Assembly: GCA_003138355.1 (NCBI GenBank)
Contig: PLFX01000029.1
Span: 1-64,000, forward strand
Direction: 5' to 3'
Origin: Solirubrobacterales bacterium
Lineage (GTDB): Bacteria > Actinomycetota > Thermoleophilia > Solirubrobacterales > Solirubrobacteraceae
DNA: 64,000 nucleotides
Positions 3,367 through 12,556 of the stretch are shown in pieces. Made by a program: the position numbers and the translations under genes. Positions within the stretch are counted from its first letter, which is position 1. The number at the start of each line of letters is the position of its first letter. Below the pieces are notes generated by a model. The model was not told where the DNA came from. It ran no database searches and worked only from the letters and a program-made list of their open reading frames with translations.

Positions 3367-4917
3367 ATGAGCGCAACCGCCCCCGCCGTGCCGACCGCGC
3401 CGCGCGCGGGCACCGAGCGGCGCCGAACCCCGTGGCTGATCCTGCCGGTCCTCTGCATCGCGGTTCTCGTGGTCAACATCGATGCGACGATCCTCAACGT
3501 CGCGCTTCCAACCCTGGTCCGCAAGCTCCACGCCAACCAGTCGGACCTCCAGTGGATCGTCGACGCCTACTCGCTCGCCTTTGGCGGCCTCTTGATCGTC
3601 GCCGGCAGCCTCGCCGACCACCTTGGCCGCAAGCGGGCCTTCATCTCAGGCTTCGCGGTCTTCGCTGTCGGCTCACTGGGCGCCGCCCTTTCTTCGAGCG
3701 TTGACATGCTCATCGCCTTCCGCGCAGTCATGGGCGCCGGCGCCGCGCTCCAGATCCCGGCCGGTCTCTCGATCCTCAATGACGTCTTCCGCTCGCCGAG
3801 CACGCGTCGCACCGCGATCGGGCTGTGGGGCGGCACGATGGGCGTCGGCGTGGCGATCGGACCGCTCACCGGCGGGGTCCTGCTCGCACACTTTGCCTGG
3901 GGCTCGATCTTCCTCGTCAACGTCCCGCTCGTCCTCCTCGGCGGCCTCGCCGCGGCTCGCCTCGTCCCCGAGTCACGCGACCCGCAGGCCGACGAGCCCG
4001 ATCCAACCGGGGCCGCTCTCTCGATCCTCGGCCTCGGCCTCGTGCTCTGGGCGGTGATCGACGCGCCGCTGCGCGGGTGGAGCTCCACCATCGTCCTGGC
4101 CACCCTCGCGGCGGGCCTCGCGACGCTGGCCCTCTTCACCGCCTTCGAGCGCCGCTCGACCCACCCGATGCTGAAGCTCGAGTTCTTCCGCTCACGCCGC
4201 TACACGGGTGCGATCGCCGCGGTCGGCCTCGGCGTCTTCGCCCTCTTCGGCGCCCTCTTCATCCTCTCGCAGCTGCTCCAGAACGAGCTCGGTTACACGC
4301 CCCTCCAGGCGGGCGTGCGCATCCTCCCGATCGCGGGCGTCCTCGCGCTCACAGCACCGGCCTCGACGCTGCTCGTCCGCCAGGTCGGCTCGAAGCTCGT
4401 CGCCGGATCCGCTCTGCTCGCGATGGCCGCCGGTTTCTGGCTGATTCGCGGCGCCTGCACACCGGCGGTCTCCTATGACTCGCTGCTGCCCGGCATGCTC
4501 TGCCTCGGGCTCGCGTCGGGCCTGCTCATGCCGACCTGCGCTGACGCGATCCTTGGCGCCGTTCCGCGCGCCAAGGCGGGCGTCGGATCAGCCACCTACG
4601 GCGTCTCGATCCAGACGGGCGGCTCGATCGGCGTCGCCGTGATCGGTTCGATCGTCGCGACGCGCTACAGCCATCGTCTCGCGCCGCTCGTCGCCCACCT
4701 CGCTCCAGCTCCCGTGCTCCACGCGATCACGGGCTCGCTCGGCGGTGCTCTGGCTGTCGCTGCCCGGCTCTCGCCGCCGTACGCCGCCATCCTCGCCCAC
4801 GCCGCTCGCACCGCCTTCATCAGCGGCATGCAGCTGAGCGCCACCGTTTCCGCCGCCGTCGCCCTCGCCGGCGCACTGCTCACGCTCGCCCTGCTACCGG
4901 CGCGCGCGGATCGTTAG
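3367..4917 (+). CDS. MFS transporter, DHA2 (EmrB/QacA) family
   Basis: NIDATILNVALPTLVRKL..., DHLGRKRAF, about 14 hydrophobic segments. Confidence 0.9.
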   Translation: MSATAPAVPTAPRAGTERRRTPWLILPVLCIAVLVVNIDATILNVALPTLVRKLHANQSDLQWIVDAYSLAFGGLLIVAGSLADHLGRKRAFISGFAVFAVGSLGAALSSSVDMLIAFRAVMGAGAALQIPAGLSILNDVFRSPSTRRTAIGLWGGTMGVGVAIGPLTGGVLLAHFAWGSIFLVNVPLVLLGGLAAARLVPESRDPQADEPDPTGAALSILGLGLVLWAVIDAPLRGWSSTIVLATLAAGLATLALFTAFERRSTHPMLKLEFFRSRRYTGAIAAVGLGVFALFGALFILSQLLQNELGYTPLQAGVRILPIAGVLALTAPASTLLVRQVGSKLVAGSALLAMAAGFWLIRGACTPAVSYDSLLPGMLCLGLASGLLMPTCADAILGAVPRAKAGVGSATYGVSIQTGGSIGVAVIGSIVATRYSHRLAPLVAHLAPAPVLHAITGSLGGALAVAARLSPPYAAILAHAARTAFISGMQLSATVSAAVALAGALLTLALLPARADR

Positions 4918-4965
4918 TCCGCCTCACCGCCCGAGCGAGTCGCTAGCGTCGTTCCGCTTGCGGAC

Positions 4966-6456
4966 CTATCCCTCGGCGACCGCTGCGGTCTCGCCGGGTG
5001 CCGCAGGCGCTGCGCCGCCCGGCACCATCGCCGGTACGTTGGAACTCGCGCGTAGCCCGAACACGGTGACGAAGAATGCGATCAGCGCAAAGCCGGTGCC
5101 GATCCAGAACGCGAGGTGATAGCCGCCGACGAGCGCGGCGAGGTGGCCGTCCCCCGTGTGCAGCAACGAGGTGGTGCGCGACGCGGCGAGGCTTGCGAGC
5201 ACCGCGAGACCGAGCGCGCCACCCATCATGAACGAGGTGTTCACGAGGCCCGAGGCGAGGCCCGAGTCTTCGGGCGGCACGTCGCCCATCGCGGCGAGCA
5301 GCATCGGGTTGAAGACGATCCCGCCGCCGAGGCCGAGCAGGATCATCGACGGGAGCACGTCGGCCGCGAAATTCCCGTGCACCGGCAGCCGCGTGAAGAG
5401 CGCGAGCCCGGCGGCCGCGAGCAGCAGGCCTACCGCGAGCGGGCGCTTGAGCCCGAAGCGCATGACGAGCATCGCCGACACGCCGAGCGAGAGGCCGCCC
5501 ATGATCAGTGTCGCCGGCAGGAACGCGAGGCCAACCTGGAGCGAGCTGTAGTGCAGAACGCCCTGGAGGTAGAGCGCAGAGAGGAAGAACCAGGCGAACA
5601 GCGCGCCCGCCCAGAGGACGCCGAGACTGTTCGCTGTCGAGAGGTTGCGGTGACGGAAGAGCCCGAGCGGCATCAGCGGCGCGCTGTTCCGCGACTCGAT
5701 TGTCAGGAACGCGCCGAGCAGCACGACCGCCCCGCCGAGCAGCCCGAGCGTCTGCGCCGAGGTCCAGCCGGCGCTGTTGCCGTTGACGATCGCGTAGACG
5801 GCAAGCATGAGCGCTGCGGTCACGCTGACCGCGCCCCCGAGGTCGAGCTTCGTGTCGGCCATACCACGGTTACCTTCCGGCAGCACGCGCAACGCGAGGA
5901 CCGCCACGATCATTCCGATCGGCACGTTGACGAGGAAGATCCAGTGCCAGCTGAGCACGTCGGTGAGGATGCCGCCGAGGATCACGCCGATCGTGCCGCC
6001 GCCGGACGCGACGAAGCCGAAGATCCCCATCGCCTTCGCGCGCTCGCCCTGCTCGGTGAAGAGCGCCATCGTGAGCGCGAGCGAAACGGCATTGACTGTC
6101 GCGCCGCCAAGGCCCTGGATCACACGCGCCGCGACGAGCATCGTCTGGCTGCTCGAAAGGCCGCACGCCAGCGAGGCGAGCGTGAACAAGGCGATGCCGC
6201 CGAGGAACAGGCGCCGCGGCCCGAACATGTCCCCGAGGCGCCCGCCGAGCAGCAGGAACCCACCGAACGTCAGGAGGTACCCGTTCACAACCCACGCGAG
6301 CGAGGACTGGTTGAAGCCGAGCGAGCGTTTGATCGTCGGTAGTGCAACGTTCACGATCGTCGTGTCGAGCACGATCATCAGCGTGCCGAGGCAGAGGACG
6401 AGTAGTGCGATCCAGCGTTCCCGATCGGCAGCGCTGCGTCCAGTCCCAGCTTCCAT
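4966..6456 (-). CDS. MFS transporter, DHA2 (EmrB/QacA) family
   Basis: LDTTIVNVALPTIKRSLGF, GGRLGDMFGPRRLF, ARVIQGLGGA motifs. Confidence 0.9.
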   Translation of the reverse strand: MEAGTGRSAADRERWIALLVLCLGTLMIVLDTTIVNVALPTIKRSLGFNQSSLAWVVNGYLLTFGGFLLLGGRLGDMFGPRRLFLGGIALFTLASLACGLSSSQTMLVAARVIQGLGGATVNAVSLALTMALFTEQGERAKAMGIFGFVASGGGTIGVILGGILTDVLSWHWIFLVNVPIGMIVAVLALRVLPEGNRGMADTKLDLGGAVSVTAALMLAVYAIVNGNSAGWTSAQTLGLLGGAVVLLGAFLTIESRNSAPLMPLGLFRHRNLSTANSLGVLWAGALFAWFFLSALYLQGVLHYSSLQVGLAFLPATLIMGGLSLGVSAMLVMRFGLKRPLAVGLLLAAAGLALFTRLPVHGNFAADVLPSMILLGLGGGIVFNPMLLAAMGDVPPEDSGLASGLVNTSFMMGGALGLAVLASLAASRTTSLLHTGDGHLAALVGGYHLAFWIGTGFALIAFFVTVFGLRASSNVPAMVPGGAAPAAPGETAAVAEG

Positions 6457-6674
6457 GCATCCCTCGCTTCCCGCCGAAGTCCCCGCTCCCATTGAAGCAG
6501 GTGGCCGTCGGCCGCCCGGCTGCGCAAGCTCGAGCAAGCCGAGAACGTGGCGAGCGAGAAGACCAGAATCCGGCCCGACCTCGAAGACCGTCGTAGCGCA
6601 GAGCCAGCGGGGACGCGCCGCCCTCGAGGCTACACGGGGACGCCCCGGGGTCTGCTCAACGGGTCGTAGACCGG

Positions 6675-6998: not shown

Positions 6999-7862
6999 CT
7001 ATTGCGACTGCCCGGCCTGTGCCTGCGAGGCCCGCGCGCGCGGATCGAGGTCGGCCAGCGTTAGCTGGTGCGCCGGCGGGCGGTCGATGATGCGGCGCGA
7101 GTCGACCCGCAGCTGCGGGTCGACGTGGAGCAGATCGCCGCTGTCAAGTAGCCGCCAGGCGGGGTCGTCGTCCATCCGCTCGCTGGCGACCACGACGAGC
7201 GGACATTTGCGAGCGTCGGCGGAATGGACGTGCGTCCCGAGGCGGCTTCGGTGGTGCAACTCCTCGCCGGCGTCGCGCTCGAGCACGTAGAGCTCGTGCG
7301 TCTGTGGGTAGCGGAGCGCCCAGAGCTCGTCCGCGCTGGTTAGCACGAAGTTGAGCGCGTAGAGCGGCAGCTGCTCCGCGATCCATGTGACCGCCGCGGT
7401 GATGCCTGCCTCGACGTCTCCACCCTGCTCGTCGATCCGCTTCGTGATCAGCGCGAAGGCGCGCTCGGAGTCAGTTTGGCCATGCACGTGCGCGAGTGCG
7501 GCGCCAAGCTCGGCGTCGAGCGTGGGGAGGTCTCCGAACGCGCCGTTGTGGGCGAACAGGCGGTGTTCCAGCTCGAACGGGTGCGTGTTCTCGCGCGCCG
7601 CCGGCCCGGTCGAGGCGAAGCGGATGTGGGCGAGGAAGGTATGCGAGCGGATCTCGTGGGCCTCGCGTACGAAGCGCTTGTCGTCGTGCGCGGCGAGCGG
7701 CTGCTTGCTGACGTGGGCCGCGCCGCGCTCGTCGAACCAGCCGATGCCGGTCCCGTCCGGCTCGCGGAAGCTCTGCCGGAGGAGGCTGTCCGGCGCGTCG
7801 AGGAGCCAGAACGTCGCCGTGGTCGGCTGCGTGCCGGAGGTCATGCCGAACAGGCGGCACAT
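6999..7862 (-). CDS. class II glutamine amidotransferase (YafJ-like)
   Basis: MCRLFGM start with Cys2 nucleophile; HIRFASTGPAARENTHPFELEHRLFAHNGAFGD. Confidence 0.85.
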   Translation of the reverse strand: MCRLFGMTSGTQPTTATFWLLDAPDSLLRQSFREPDGTGIGWFDERGAAHVSKQPLAAHDDKRFVREAHEIRSHTFLAHIRFASTGPAARENTHPFELEHRLFAHNGAFGDLPTLDAELGAALAHVHGQTDSERAFALITKRIDEQGGDVEAGITAAVTWIAEQLPLYALNFVLTSADELWALRYPQTHELYVLERDAGEELHHRSRLGTHVHSADARKCPLVVVASERMDDDPAWRLLDSGDLLHVDPQLRVDSRRIIDRPPAHQLTLADLDPRARASQAQAGQSQ

Positions 7863-7991
7863 GCGTGGAACGGTAGCTGGCGAGCGGACCTCGGTTGCGT
7901 CGCGCCGCCTCGCTGCTGGCGAACGGCGAATCGCGATCGCTGCGATCAGTGGGGACAGACCAACCGCCTGACCGCCGCTATCGTGGCCCGG

Positions 7992-8100
7992 ATGACCACG
8001 CGCGCGTGGACGCTCTTCGGCGCCCTCTCGGTCGTCTGGGGCGTTCCCTACCTCTTCATCAAGCTCGCCGATGATGGCGGCGCGACGCCGGGCCTGCACG
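7992..8100 (+). pseudogene. N-terminal remnant of EamA/DMT-type transporter
   Basis: MTTRAWTLFGALSVVWGVPYLFIKLADDGGATPG then loss of similarity. Confidence 0.5.
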
Positions 8101-8243
8101 ACCGACCGGCTCGCGCTCGATTTCGCCTCGCCCGATTTCGATCGCGTCGACGAGCCCCCTTGCTTGGCGCTTCACCTACTCGTCGAGGGGCGGATCGTCG
8201 TGCCGTGTCCGGTTCGGCGCGGCTCGAGCGTCTTAGTTGATAG

Positions 8244-9359
8244 ATGGAGCGCCAGACACTGATCGAAGACGAGCGCGGGCCGCTCGTCGCGCGCCTCACA
8301 GCCGTCCTGGGTGGCGATCGCCACGCGGCGGAAGATCTCGCCCAGGAGGCGCTGTTCCGCGCCTGGCAGCGCCTTCCGGAGGGGCTCGACGCGTCGCGTC
8401 GGCGGGCCTGGCTCGCGCGCACGGCGCGCAACCTCGCGATCGACGAGCTGCGCCGCCGCTCGCGCCGTCCGCTCGCGAGCGCGGCGGATACCGCAGGGCT
8501 GCCGGCCGCCGAGCCTGACGCCGCGCGCGAGGCGCTCGCCCGGCTGAGTCCCCACGAGCGCTTCGCGCTGCTGCTGCGCTTCGAGGCCGGCTTTACGCAC
8601 GCGGAGATCGCGGCGCTCCTCTCGACGACCGAGGAGGCGGCGCGCAAGCGCGTGTCAAGAGCGCGCGCCGCGTTCCTGCGCTCCTACCGCGCCGAGCGCG
8701 CCGGCAGCGAGCCGCTGATCCTCCTCGCAATCGGCGAGCAGCAGTCGGCGGCGCCGTACGTCCGCTGGCTCGAGCAGGCCGGCGCGCGCGTGCGCCAGAT
8801 GCGCAGTGGTGTCGGCGAGCGTGATCTCGCGACCGCCGACGGGATCGTCTTCACCGGCGCAGGCAACGACATCGATCCGCGCCTCTATGGCGAGCGCCGG
8901 CGCGCGGTCTGCGTGGAGCCTGATATCGCCGCCGACCGACTCGAGCTGGCCGCGCTATCAGGCGCGCTCGCACTCGATCTACCCGTCGTCGGCATCTGTC
9001 GCGGCGGCCAACTACTCAACATCGCCTCGGGCGGCAGCCTCTACCAGGACGTTCACGCCGACGGCCTGACCAAGCTCACCCACAACGGCACGCCACACCT
9101 TGTGCGCACTGAGCGCGCCGGGCTGATTCGCCGCCTCGCGGGCGCTTCGCCGCAGGTCCACAGCGAGCACCATCAGGCGGTCCGCAGCCTCGGCCGGCGG
9201 CTGCGCGTCACCGCTCAGTCTGCAGACGGCGTGATCGAGACCATCGAGCGCGACGACCGGCGTTTCGCGATCGGCCTCCAGTGGCATCCCGAGCACTCCG
9301 ACAGCGCGGCCGGCGCGCTCGTCGCCGAGGCGCTCGTCGAGGCCGCCGCGACGCGCTGA
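8244..9359 (+). CDS. ECF sigma factor fused to class I glutamine amidotransferase / gamma-glutamyl hydrolase (peptidase C26-like) domain
   Basis: Single ORF: sigma regions 2 and 4 (residues about 1-150), then GATase1 domain with PVVGICRGGQLLNI nucleophile elbow and LQWHPEHS. Confidence 0.85.
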   Translation: MERQTLIEDERGPLVARLTAVLGGDRHAAEDLAQEALFRAWQRLPEGLDASRRRAWLARTARNLAIDELRRRSRRPLASAADTAGLPAAEPDAAREALARLSPHERFALLLRFEAGFTHAEIAALLSTTEEAARKRVSRARAAFLRSYRAERAGSEPLILLAIGEQQSAAPYVRWLEQAGARVRQMRSGVGERDLATADGIVFTGAGNDIDPRLYGERRRAVCVEPDIAADRLELAALSGALALDLPVVGICRGGQLLNIASGGSLYQDVHADGLTKLTHNGTPHLVRTERAGLIRRLAGASPQVHSEHHQAVRSLGRRLRVTAQSADGVIETIERDDRRFAIGLQWHPEHSDSAAGALVAEALVEAAATR

Positions 9360-10169: not shown

Positions 10170-10559
10170 ATGAGCAAGGCATACCGTAAGCGCAACCTCG
10201 GTGATGTAGAGGACTCGGCGGCGAAGCACGGTCTCTCCGAGACGCAGGAGGCGCGCTTTCCTCGCGTCGAGCTTGGCGCGGAGCAGACCGCAATGAACTA
10301 CCTGAAGGTCAAGCCGAACAAGCGCGAGGCGTTCGCTCACCGCCATCACGAGGCGGAGGAGATTTACGTCGTGCTTGCCGGCGGCGGTCGCGTTAAGCTC
10401 GATTACGAGATCGTCGAGCTGGTCAAGCTTGACGCGGTGCGCGTCAGTCCCGGCACGGCACGCTCGTTCGAGGCCGGGCCGGACGGCCTCGAGGTGCTGA
10501 TCTTCGGGCGCCGCTTCGAGGGCGACGGCGAGATCGTCGAGGACTTCTGGGGCCCATAG
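10170..10559 (+). CDS. cupin domain protein
   Basis: AFAHRHHEAEEIYVVLAGGGRVKLD...VRVSPGTARSFEAG. Confidence 0.8.
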   Translation: MSKAYRKRNLGDVEDSAAKHGLSETQEARFPRVELGAEQTAMNYLKVKPNKREAFAHRHHEAEEIYVVLAGGGRVKLDYEIVELVKLDAVRVSPGTARSFEAGPDGLEVLIFGRRFEGDGEIVEDFWGP

Positions 10560-10889: not shown

Positions 10890-12556
10890 TGGCGGAGCGA
10901 GCTAAACCGCTCGGCACGGGCGTCCCGGAGCCGGAGAACGTCGGCGGCGCGTTCCCTCGCCTGACGGATGCGCAGCTGGCGAAGGTACGGGCCGCGGGAA
11001 CCGTGCGCGCGGTAGCGGCCGGCGAGGTTCTCTTCCGCGAGGGCGATCTCGACTACGACTTCTTCGTCGTCGAGGCCGGCAGCGTGACGATCGTCCAGGG
11101 CTACGGCGCCGAGAACCGCGTGATCGCGGTCCACGGCAGCGGCCGCTTCCTCGGCGAGCTCAACCTGCTCACCGGCGCGCCGCCGCTGCTCAGCGCGATC
11201 GTACGCGAGCCCGGCAGCGTGATTCAGGTCCCGGTGGCCGAGCTGACACGCCTCGTCGCCGCCAACGAGGACCTCTCGAACCTGATCTTGCGCGCCTTGC
11301 TCGCGCGGCGCGCGATCATGATCGATCGCGGCGCCGGGATCCGCGTGATCGGCTCACGCTTCTCGCGCGACGCGCAGCGCCTGCGCGAGTTCTTGCGGCG
11401 CAACCGCATGCCCTACCAGTGGCTCGATCTTGAGCAGGACGAGGAGGCCGCGGCGCTGCTGGACGCGCTCTCGATCGCGCCGGATGAGACGCCCGTCGTG
11501 CTCGCCGCAGGCGGCGTGCTGCGCGATCCGACGAATGCGGAGCTCGCGGGGATGCTCGGCCTGAGCGCACGCGGCGCGCCCCCCGCGCTGTGCGACCTGA
11601 TCATCGTTGGCGGCGGACCGGCCGGGCTCGCCGCGGCCGTCTACGGGGCCTCGGAGGGGCTCGACACGCAGCTGATCGAGAAGCTCGCGTTCGGCGGGCA
11701 GGCGAGCACGTCCGCGCGGATCGAGAACTACCTCGGCTTCCCGACCGGGATCTCAGGCAGCGAGCTCGCGGAGCGCGCGACCCTCCAGGCGCGGCGCTTT
11801 GGCGCGCGCCTCGTTGTGCCCGCCCAGGCTAGAACCCTCGCCTACGAGGACGGCCACTTCGCGATCGAGTTCGCCGACGCAACGACGGTGCGAGGCCGGT
11901 CGATCATCGTCGCGACCGGGGCGAGCTACCGCAGGCTCGACATCCCCGGATTCGAGCGCTTCGAGATGGGCGGGGTCTTCTTCGCCGCAACCCAGGCGGA
12001 GGGTCAGCTCTGCGCCGGCGACCCGGTGGTCGTCGTCGGCGGCGGCAATTCTGCCGGCCAGGCGGCGATGTTCCTATCGCAGCGTTCAGCTTCGACGACG
12101 CTTGTCGTGCGGGGACCCGATCTGGGAAAGTCGATGTCGCGCTACCTGATCAACGAAATCGAGGACCGCGAGCAGATCGACGTGCTACCGAACGCCGAGG
12201 TGATCGAGCTCAAGGGCACGGACGAGCGGCTCGAGTCACTCGTCGTCCGCGACACGCTGGACGGCGCGCAGCGCGAGATCGACTGCAAAGCGCTCTTCGT
12301 GTTCATTGGCGCCGAGCCGCACACCGACTGGCTGCGCGGCCATGTTGCGATGGACGAGCACGGCTTCCTGCTCACCGGGCGCGATGTCCAGGCCGAGTCG
12401 CTCAGCGGTGAGCGACCGCTCTTCCTCGAGACGAGTCAGCTCGGCATCTTTGCCGTCGGCGATGTCCACGCAGGCTCGGTGAAGCGCGTCGCCTCCGCCG
12501 TCGGCGAGGGCTCGATGGCGGTCCAGCTCGTGCACCAGCGCCTCGCTGCCCTCTAG
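10889..12556 (+). CDS. cyclic nucleotide-binding domain / thioredoxin-reductase-like FAD oxidoreductase
   Basis: N-terminal cNMP-binding domain (GEVLFREGDLDYDFFVVEAGSV); GGGPAGLAAAVYGASEGL, VVVGGGNSAGQAA, FAVGDVHAG; start overlaps preceding stop (TGATG). Confidence 0.9.
   Translation: MAERAKPLGTGVPEPENVGGAFPRLTDAQLAKVRAAGTVRAVAAGEVLFREGDLDYDFFVVEAGSVTIVQGYGAENRVIAVHGSGRFLGELNLLTGAPPLLSAIVREPGSVIQVPVAELTRLVAANEDLSNLILRALLARRAIMIDRGAGIRVIGSRFSRDAQRLREFLRRNRMPYQWLDLEQDEEAAALLDALSIAPDETPVVLAAGGVLRDPTNAELAGMLGLSARGAPPALCDLIIVGGGPAGLAAAVYGASEGLDTQLIEKLAFGGQASTSARIENYLGFPTGISGSELAERATLQARRFGARLVVPAQARTLAYEDGHFAIEFADATTVRGRSIIVATGASYRRLDIPGFERFEMGGVFFAATQAEGQLCAGDPVVVVGGGNSAGQAAMFLSQRSASTTLVVRGPDLGKSMSRYLINEIEDREQIDVLPNAEVIELKGTDERLESLVVRDTLDGAQREIDCKALFVFIGAEPHTDWLRGHVAMDEHGFLLTGRDVQAESLSGERPLFLETSQLGIFAVGDVHAGSVKRVASAVGEGSMAVQLVHQRLAAL

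What the first reader, a model, noticed from the sequence alone, without database searches (positions are those of the whole stretch)
8244..9359. ECF sigma factor fused in one ORF to a class I glutamine-amidotransferase / gamma-glutamyl hydrolase domain
One uninterrupted 371-aa ORF starts with sigma regions 2 and 4 (LAQEALFRAWQRLPEG...LSPHERFALLLRFEAGFTHAEIAALLSTTEEAARKRVSRARAAF). It continues directly into a peptidase C26/PuuD-like domain with an apparently intact nucleophile elbow (VVGICRGGQLLN) and QWHPE motif. ECF sigma factors with C-terminal sensor extensions are established (e.g. SnoaL-like in ECF41, TPR in ECF42), but I do not recall a GATase1 fusion as a described group. No anti-sigma gene is adjacent, so the GATase domain could be an in-cis sensor of gamma-glutamyl metabolites or polyamine/GABA intermediates. 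The alternative is a fusion in which one half is passive.
Basis: partly seen in the sequence, partly recalled or inferred. Interest (0 to 1): 0.8.

Follow-up and report, generated by a model that had tools for sequence, protein, structure and literature searches.

The report
Self-regulated sigma factor with hydrolase domain
Soil actinobacteria of the order Solirubrobacterales carry a conserved protein that joins a transcription-starting sigma factor to a glutamine-type hydrolase domain and very probably switches on its own gene, so one molecule may both sense a nitrogen metabolite and direct RNA polymerase.

Summary
Window 8244-9359 (+) is one 371-aa ORF: ECF sigma regions 2 and 4, then a class-I GATase (Peptidase C26/PuuD-like) domain. 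It is not an artefact. The fusion family is found in 28 of 232 genomes of its order, Solirubrobacterales (one hit is a GATase half at a contig edge), including cultured Conexibacter. None turned up outside the order in samples of 399 class and 398 phylum genomes. The GATase halves form one clade, both halves evolve together under purifying selection, and the sigma4-GATase junction has fixed length (17-19 aa).

New result: 25 of 26 readable homologues carry an ECF-type promoter, TGTCCGSTT-N14-CGTCT, about 10 nt before the start codon. In the window genome it occurs once, before this gene. I infer autoregulation without an anti-sigma factor, with the GATase domain as in-cis sensor. In one genus the same promoter also precedes a cupin gene (which in a third species directly follows the fusion gene) and a stand-alone GATase-like gene. 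Two members lost the catalytic His/Glu but kept the Cys, which favours sensing over catalysis there. Ligand and direction of control are unknown. [quoted passage not shown]

The parts
8206..8214 (+). -35 element TGTCCGGTT of the conserved ECF-type promoter
   Evidence: Same element at the same place before 25 of 26 readable homologues; only 0-mismatch site in the window genome
8229..8233 (+). -10 element CGTCT, exactly 17 bp after TGTCCG, 11 nt (from CGTC) before the ATG; transcript probably leaderless (inferred)
8244..9359 (+). ECF sigma factor - class-I GATase (Peptidase C26) fusion gene, 371 aa
8277..8468 (+). Sigma-70 region 2 (residues 12-75)
   Evidence: Pfam PF04542
8523..8672 (+). Sigma-70 region 4 (residues 94-143); recognition helix AARKRxxRAR invariant at its key positions
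   Evidence: Pfam PF08281; alignment A2
8715..9356 (+). Class-I GATase / Peptidase C26 domain (residues 158-371; Pfam match 169-350, profile 26-219 of 219)
8997..8999 (+). Cys252 codon, predicted nucleophile, invariant in 21 of 21 full-length homologues
9285..9293 (+). His348-Pro-Glu350 codons, predicted rest of the triad; His and Glu kept in 20 of 21 (K and Q in G010; also Q and Q in incomplete member G063)

Best explanation
It is a one-component, autoregulated ECF sigma factor. Sigma2 and sigma4 direct RNA polymerase to TGTCCGSTT-N14-CGTCT promoters, above all that of its own gene (inferred from its position). There is no anti-sigma factor; the C-terminal PuuD-like GATase domain, held at fixed distance from sigma4, acts as regulator in cis, binding a glutamine or gamma-glutamyl type metabolite in its Cys active site and so allowing or blocking holoenzyme formation or promoter binding. 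SHOWN by sequence: fusion, its conservation, selection on both halves, fixed junction, conserved promoter, its single occurrence in the window genome, loss of His/Glu in two relatives. INFERRED: that this sigma reads that promoter, that the GATase domain is the sensor, the ligand class, and that signal binding changes sigma conformation. Whether most members also hydrolyse the ligand (a trigger enzyme) is open; the intact triad in 20 of 21 makes it likely that many do.
For: Fusion in 28 of 232 genomes of the order, 13 genera (in one of these only the GATase half is seen). GATase halves are one clade against stand-alone C26 proteins, support 100/99. Mirror r = 0.869, 0 of 5000 permutations as high; dN/dS in 5 pairs 0.19-0.49 (sigma) and 0.14-0.44 (GATase). 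Distance from sigma4 end to first GATase strand 17-19 aa in 21 of 21, against 24-41 aa for the sigma2-sigma4 linker. Promoter before 25 of 26 readable starts with exact 17-bp spacer, including G063 (score 22.2) and G069 (19.6), which were not used to build the matrix; chance rate of scores >= 19.5 is 0.25 per Mb per strand and no score >= 22 in 20 Mb simulated. One 0-mismatch site, none with 1 mismatch, in the window genome. Same promoter 9-15 nt before a cupin gene in G031 and G066, whose 67% identical homologue directly follows the fusion in G063; and 9 nt before a PRK06186-like GATase gene in G031 and G066. No anti-sigma among annotated neighbours. Architecture parallels ECF41, promoter TGTCACA-n16-CGTC (PMC3426412). 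G010 and G063 keep Cys but lack His/Glu.
Against: No experiment. Autoregulation rests on motif position; another ECF sigma could read the same promoter. The intact triad in most members is also what a plain enzyme would show. In the window genus no target besides the gene itself stands out, so the output may be the hydrolase itself. Outside genus g8 further targets are few; gltB is a single-species hit (G010 26.1; G066 17.1, G031 10.7, none elsewhere).
Confidence: 0.6

Rival explanations
1. Trigger enzyme: the GATase domain is first of all a working gamma-glutamyl hydrolase, and the sigma half serves to raise its own synthesis when substrate is present. The enzyme is both output and sensor, so the loop needs no other target.
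For: Cys-His-Glu triad intact in 20 of 21 full-length members; in the window genome the only strong promoter is its own. Bifunctional enzyme-regulators such as PutA are established (own knowledge; trigger enzymes discussed in PMC3178575, found, not read in full).
Against: G010 and G063 lost His and Glu yet keep the fusion, the promoter and the Cys. The beta1-alpha1 segment of the enzyme family is shortened (Pfam match starts at profile position 26). Separate target genes exist in genus g8.
Confidence: 0.25
2. Passive fusion: the GATase domain is cargo, or only stabilises the protein, and sigma activity is set by transcription level alone.
For: No ligand or activity known; two members have lost catalytic residues.
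Against: Equal conservation of both halves, purifying selection, single origin with co-divergence over several families, fixed junction length; invariant Cys, HHQ and two Glu (332, 335) in all members.
Confidence: 0.1
3. Assembly or frameshift artefact joining two neighbouring genes.
For: The window comes from a 64-contig draft; one relative (G069) has frameshifts.
Against: The same single ORF in complete single-contig genomes (G010, G031, G062, G073, G080) and in cultured Conexibacter strains, always with the same junction.
Confidence: 0.01

Closest known systems
ECF41 sigma factors (SigJ, Ecf41Bli)
   Same: ECF sigma2/sigma4 with a large C-terminal extension in place of an anti-sigma factor; autoregulated promoter of the same layout (TGTC....n16..CGTC; PMC3426412); very small regulon
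   Different: Extension is SnoaL-like, not GATase; -35 is TGTCACA rather than TGTCCGS; partner genes are carboxymuconolactone decarboxylases, oxidoreductases or epimerases
ECF42 (TPR) and ECF238/CorE (Cys-rich) sigma factors
   Same: C-terminal extension carries regulation, no anti-sigma factor (PMC8999054)
   Different: Extension is a TPR array or metal-binding Cys-rich domain; neither is an enzyme fold
PuuD / SpuA gamma-glutamyl-GABA and gamma-glutamylpolyamine hydrolases (Peptidase C26)
   Same: Fold and Cys-His-Glu triad; best structural matches 6vtv, 3fij, 7d50/7d53
   Different: Stand-alone enzymes; the fused domains form their own clade, have a shortened N-terminal segment, and two members lack His/Glu
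PutA-type trigger enzymes (from own knowledge)
   Same: Metabolic enzyme and transcription control in one polypeptide, controlling its own gene
   Different: PutA uses a DNA-binding repressor domain, not a sigma factor

Membership tests
ECF (group 4) sigma factor | Regions 2 and 4 only, no region 3 or 1.1 | tested here: met
   Pfam r2 12-75, r4_2 94-143, 18-residue linker between; TIGR02937 sigma70-ECF 62.7 bits against a cut-off of 42.9
ECF (group 4) sigma factor | Recognises an ECF-type -35/-10 promoter, often its own | tested here: inconclusive
   Conserved promoter before 25 of 26 homologues; binding itself not tested
ECF41 | SnoaL-like C-terminal extension | tested here: not met
   Extension is Peptidase_C26/GATase
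ECF41 | Promoter TGTCACA-n16-CGTC | tested here: not met
   TGTCCGS-n16-CGTC: same layout, other -35 letters
ECF42 | TPR-rich C-terminal extension of about 200 residues | tested here: not met
   No TPR match
A numbered group of the 2021 ECF classification | Match to a group HMM | not testable with these tools
   Neither the models nor the paper (10.1093/nar/gkaa1229) are held
Peptidase C26 / PuuD-like class-I GATase | Pfam model match and alpha/beta fold | tested here: met
   145.8 bits against a cut-off of 20.5; Foldseek 6vtv 4.6e-17
Peptidase C26 / PuuD-like class-I GATase | Cys-His-Glu catalytic triad | tested here: met
   C252, H348, E350 in the window protein; H and E lost in G010 and G063
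Peptidase C26 / PuuD-like class-I GATase | Hydrolyses gamma-glutamyl amides | not tested
   Needs an assay; no NCBIfam equivalog cut-off is reached (PRK11366 82.8 bits against 266)

The most novel reading that the evidence does not exclude
The GATase domain is a covalent sensor: Cys252 takes a gamma-glutamyl group from its substrate, and the acyl-enzyme (thioester) state, rather than turnover, sets sigma activity. Members without His/Glu (G010, G063) would be natural counterparts of the SpuA H221N mutant whose glutamyl-thioester was trapped in a crystal (7d50). This would be a sigma factor switched by acylation of its own active site.
Probability: 0.1. Interest if true: 0.88.

Novelty: new variant of a known kind. 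Interest (0 to 1): 0.62.

Why it matters
ECF sigma factors with built-in sensors are the least understood branch of bacterial signal transduction; PMC8999054 counts at least 26 groups with N- or C-terminal extensions, 15 of them unstudied. Here the extension is an enzyme of known fold and chemistry with a plausible ligand class, in cultured strains, and with its target promoter already read from the sequence. It makes the question 'how does a fused domain switch an ECF sigma factor?' directly testable with one purified protein, one promoter and a small panel of amides. It may also be an orthogonal sigma/promoter pair with a metabolite input for synthetic circuits.

Tried and rejected
Single-protein scan of genome contigs found nothing; the alignment scan recovered ten fusion-family contigs, nearly all Solirubrobacterales. 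Gene-neighbourhood clustering found no conserved operon partner across genera, apart from a syntenic block in genus g22. Major-facilitator transporters lie within about 8 kb in five lineages (window, G010, G024, G069, G073) but I did not measure the background, so no link is claimed. A stand-alone PuuD gene about 4 kb from an ECF gene in the window genome (G000:C42) sits among unrelated genes (ogt, PAP2, DUF1015) and was dropped. gltB as a general target was tested and not supported outside G010. Cupin homologues outside G031, G066 and G063 lack the promoter. Two-mismatch promoter sites in G000, G001 and G003 are no more frequent than the reversed control. Anti-phage models: no match. Literature: no paper found naming a sigma-GATase fusion; the main ECF classification paper is not held.

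Full report
1. Observation. The ORF at 8244-9359 (+) is open for 371 codons. Pfam finds Sigma70_r2 (12-75), Sigma70_r4_2 (94-143) and Peptidase_C26 (169-350), the last at 2e-42, with the class-I GATase model overlapping. A predicted structure built on 21 homologues has mean pLDDT 87 and pTM 0.72, with low confidence only in the sigma2-sigma4 linker (75-86). Its best structural matches are PuuD, lin1909 and SpuA.

2. Not an accident. The same single-ORF architecture is found across the order. Of 232 genomes of the order searched, 28 in 13 genera and three families match at E <= 1e-55. One of these, G578 in the third family, shows only the GATase half at a contig edge. Outside the order none was seen among 399 genomes drawn from the class and 398 from the phylum. 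Matches are bimodal: fusions score above 270 bits, stand-alone C26 proteins at most about 170. Named records show the order is Solirubrobacterales (Thermoleophilia, Actinomycetota), with two cultured Conexibacter strains. Several carriers are single-contig genomes.

3. One origin, both halves kept. The GATase halves of 21 fusions form one clade against 29 stand-alone C26 proteins (100/99). Distances of the two halves correlate (r = 0.869, 0 of 5000 permutations as high), and both have mean pairwise difference 0.50. In five close pairs dN/dS is 0.19-0.49 for the sigma half and 0.14-0.44 for the GATase half. The stretch from the end of sigma region 4 to the first GATase strand is 17-19 residues in all 21, whereas the sigma2-sigma4 linker varies from 24 to 41 and has no invariant residue. 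This argues for a fixed geometry between sigma4 and the GATase domain.

4. The promoter. Upstream DNA of the homologues is unrelated except for one element: [TC]GTCCG[GC]T[TC]-N14-CGTC[T/A], with exactly 17 bp between TGTCCG and CGTC, and CGTC 8-20 (mostly 10-12) nt before the start codon. In the window it is TGTCCGGTT at 8206-8214 and CGTCT at 8229-8233. A matrix from 23 of these sites finds it again, with good scores, at the starts of two members not used to build it, G063 (22.2) and G069 (19.6). G056 has a weak version (13.1) and G103 none, giving 25 of 26 with the site. In 20 Mb of simulated sequence with the same dinucleotide make-up, scores of 19.5 or more occur 0.25 times per Mb and strand, and 22 or more never. 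In the full 64-kb window the next best site scores 13.7. In the whole window genome the motif occurs once without mismatch, before this gene, with none at one mismatch. Because the -10 lies so near the ATG, the transcript is probably leaderless (inference). The layout equals that of ECF41 promoters (TGTCACA-n16-CGTC; PMC3426412) with other -35 letters.

5. Further targets. The strict pattern was counted in 27 carrier genomes: 52 sites against 12 for the reversed control. 25 of the 52 are the fusion genes' own promoters or their remnants. Among the rest, some stand at the right distance from a start codon in more than one species. (a) A Cupin_2 protein in G031 and G066 (11-15 nt); its 67% identical homologue in G063 lies immediately downstream of the fusion gene on the same strand. 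(b) A stand-alone GATase-like protein of the PRK06186 type (CTP synthase C-terminal region-related) in G031 and G066, 9 nt. (c) A short protein directly after the fusion in G031. (d) A 70-78-aa protein in two Conexibacter-genus genomes, G024 and G080. (e) A perfect site about 190 bp upstream of gltB in G010 only. Items (a) and (b) are the safest. Item (e) is tentative.

6. Mechanism. No neighbour I annotated is an anti-sigma factor. The simplest reading is a one-component, autoregulated ECF sigma factor whose GATase domain replaces the anti-sigma factor. Most members keep the full triad (Cys252, His348, Glu350; 20 of 21), so hydrolysis is possible. G010 (QWKPQ) and the incomplete member G063 (QWQPQ) have lost His and Glu but keep the Cys, the HHQ motif, the fusion and the promoter. 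In these the domain can hardly be an ordinary hydrolase, which favours a binding or sensing role. The ligand is unknown; glutamine or a gamma-glutamyl amide is the natural guess from the fold and from targets (b) and (e).

7. Membership and novelty. It is an ECF sigma factor (TIGR02937 above its cut-off) and a Peptidase C26 domain. It is not ECF41 or ECF42: their defining extensions are absent. A 2022 review lists groups with regulatory extensions and names no GATase or hydrolase extension (PMC8999054); a 2021 review likewise has no mention (PMC8103513). The full 2021 classification is not held, so a numbered group that includes these proteins cannot be excluded. I call it a new variant of a known kind.

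8. Limits. All evidence is from sequence and prediction. The sign of control, the ligand and the claim that this sigma reads this promoter need experiments, listed under next steps.

Noticed in passing
L091 (G003) about 10380-10530 (-) and L092 (G001) about 12200-12345 (-): Upstream of the fusion gene in the two sister species lies a second, near-identical copy of its promoter followed by about 50 degraded codons of its N-terminus: the remnant of a tandem duplication.
   Followed up: partly
L091:9979-10344 (-), L092:11791-12156 (-), L096:9272-9661 (+): A small protein without Pfam match (reads like a truncated GNAT: LLxxELxGRPVAAxSL...ADDVVALLRLRALQL) lies next to the fusion gene in two genera, under a copy of its promoter in G031.
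   Followed up: partly
window 6999-8099 (-): A class-II glutamine amidotransferase (GATase_4) is divergently transcribed right next to the class-I GATase fusion; not conserved in other genera.
   Followed up: partly
window 3367-6537; L095:6596-8080: Two convergent major-facilitator transporters upstream in the window; in G010 a related transporter gene overlaps the fusion gene by 4 nt. Background frequency not measured.
   Followed up: partly
L280:3-776 (= L089, G578): A GATase half of the fusion clade preceded, at a contig edge, by a TPR-like stretch instead of sigma domains: possible second fusion partner or a chimeric contig.
   Followed up: partly
L108 8471-9500 (-), G069: This copy has frameshifts near both ends; its promoter is intact. 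Draft-assembly errors or a decaying gene.
   Followed up: no
window 10170-10559 (+): A cupin-like gene lies 0.8 kb downstream of the fusion in the window; it has no fusion-type promoter and is not the close homologue of the cupin target in genus g8.
   Followed up: partly
L178 and L184 (G024, G080): A GAF/histidine-kinase gene with a promoter-like site about 120 nt upstream in both Conexibacter-genus genomes.
   Followed up: no
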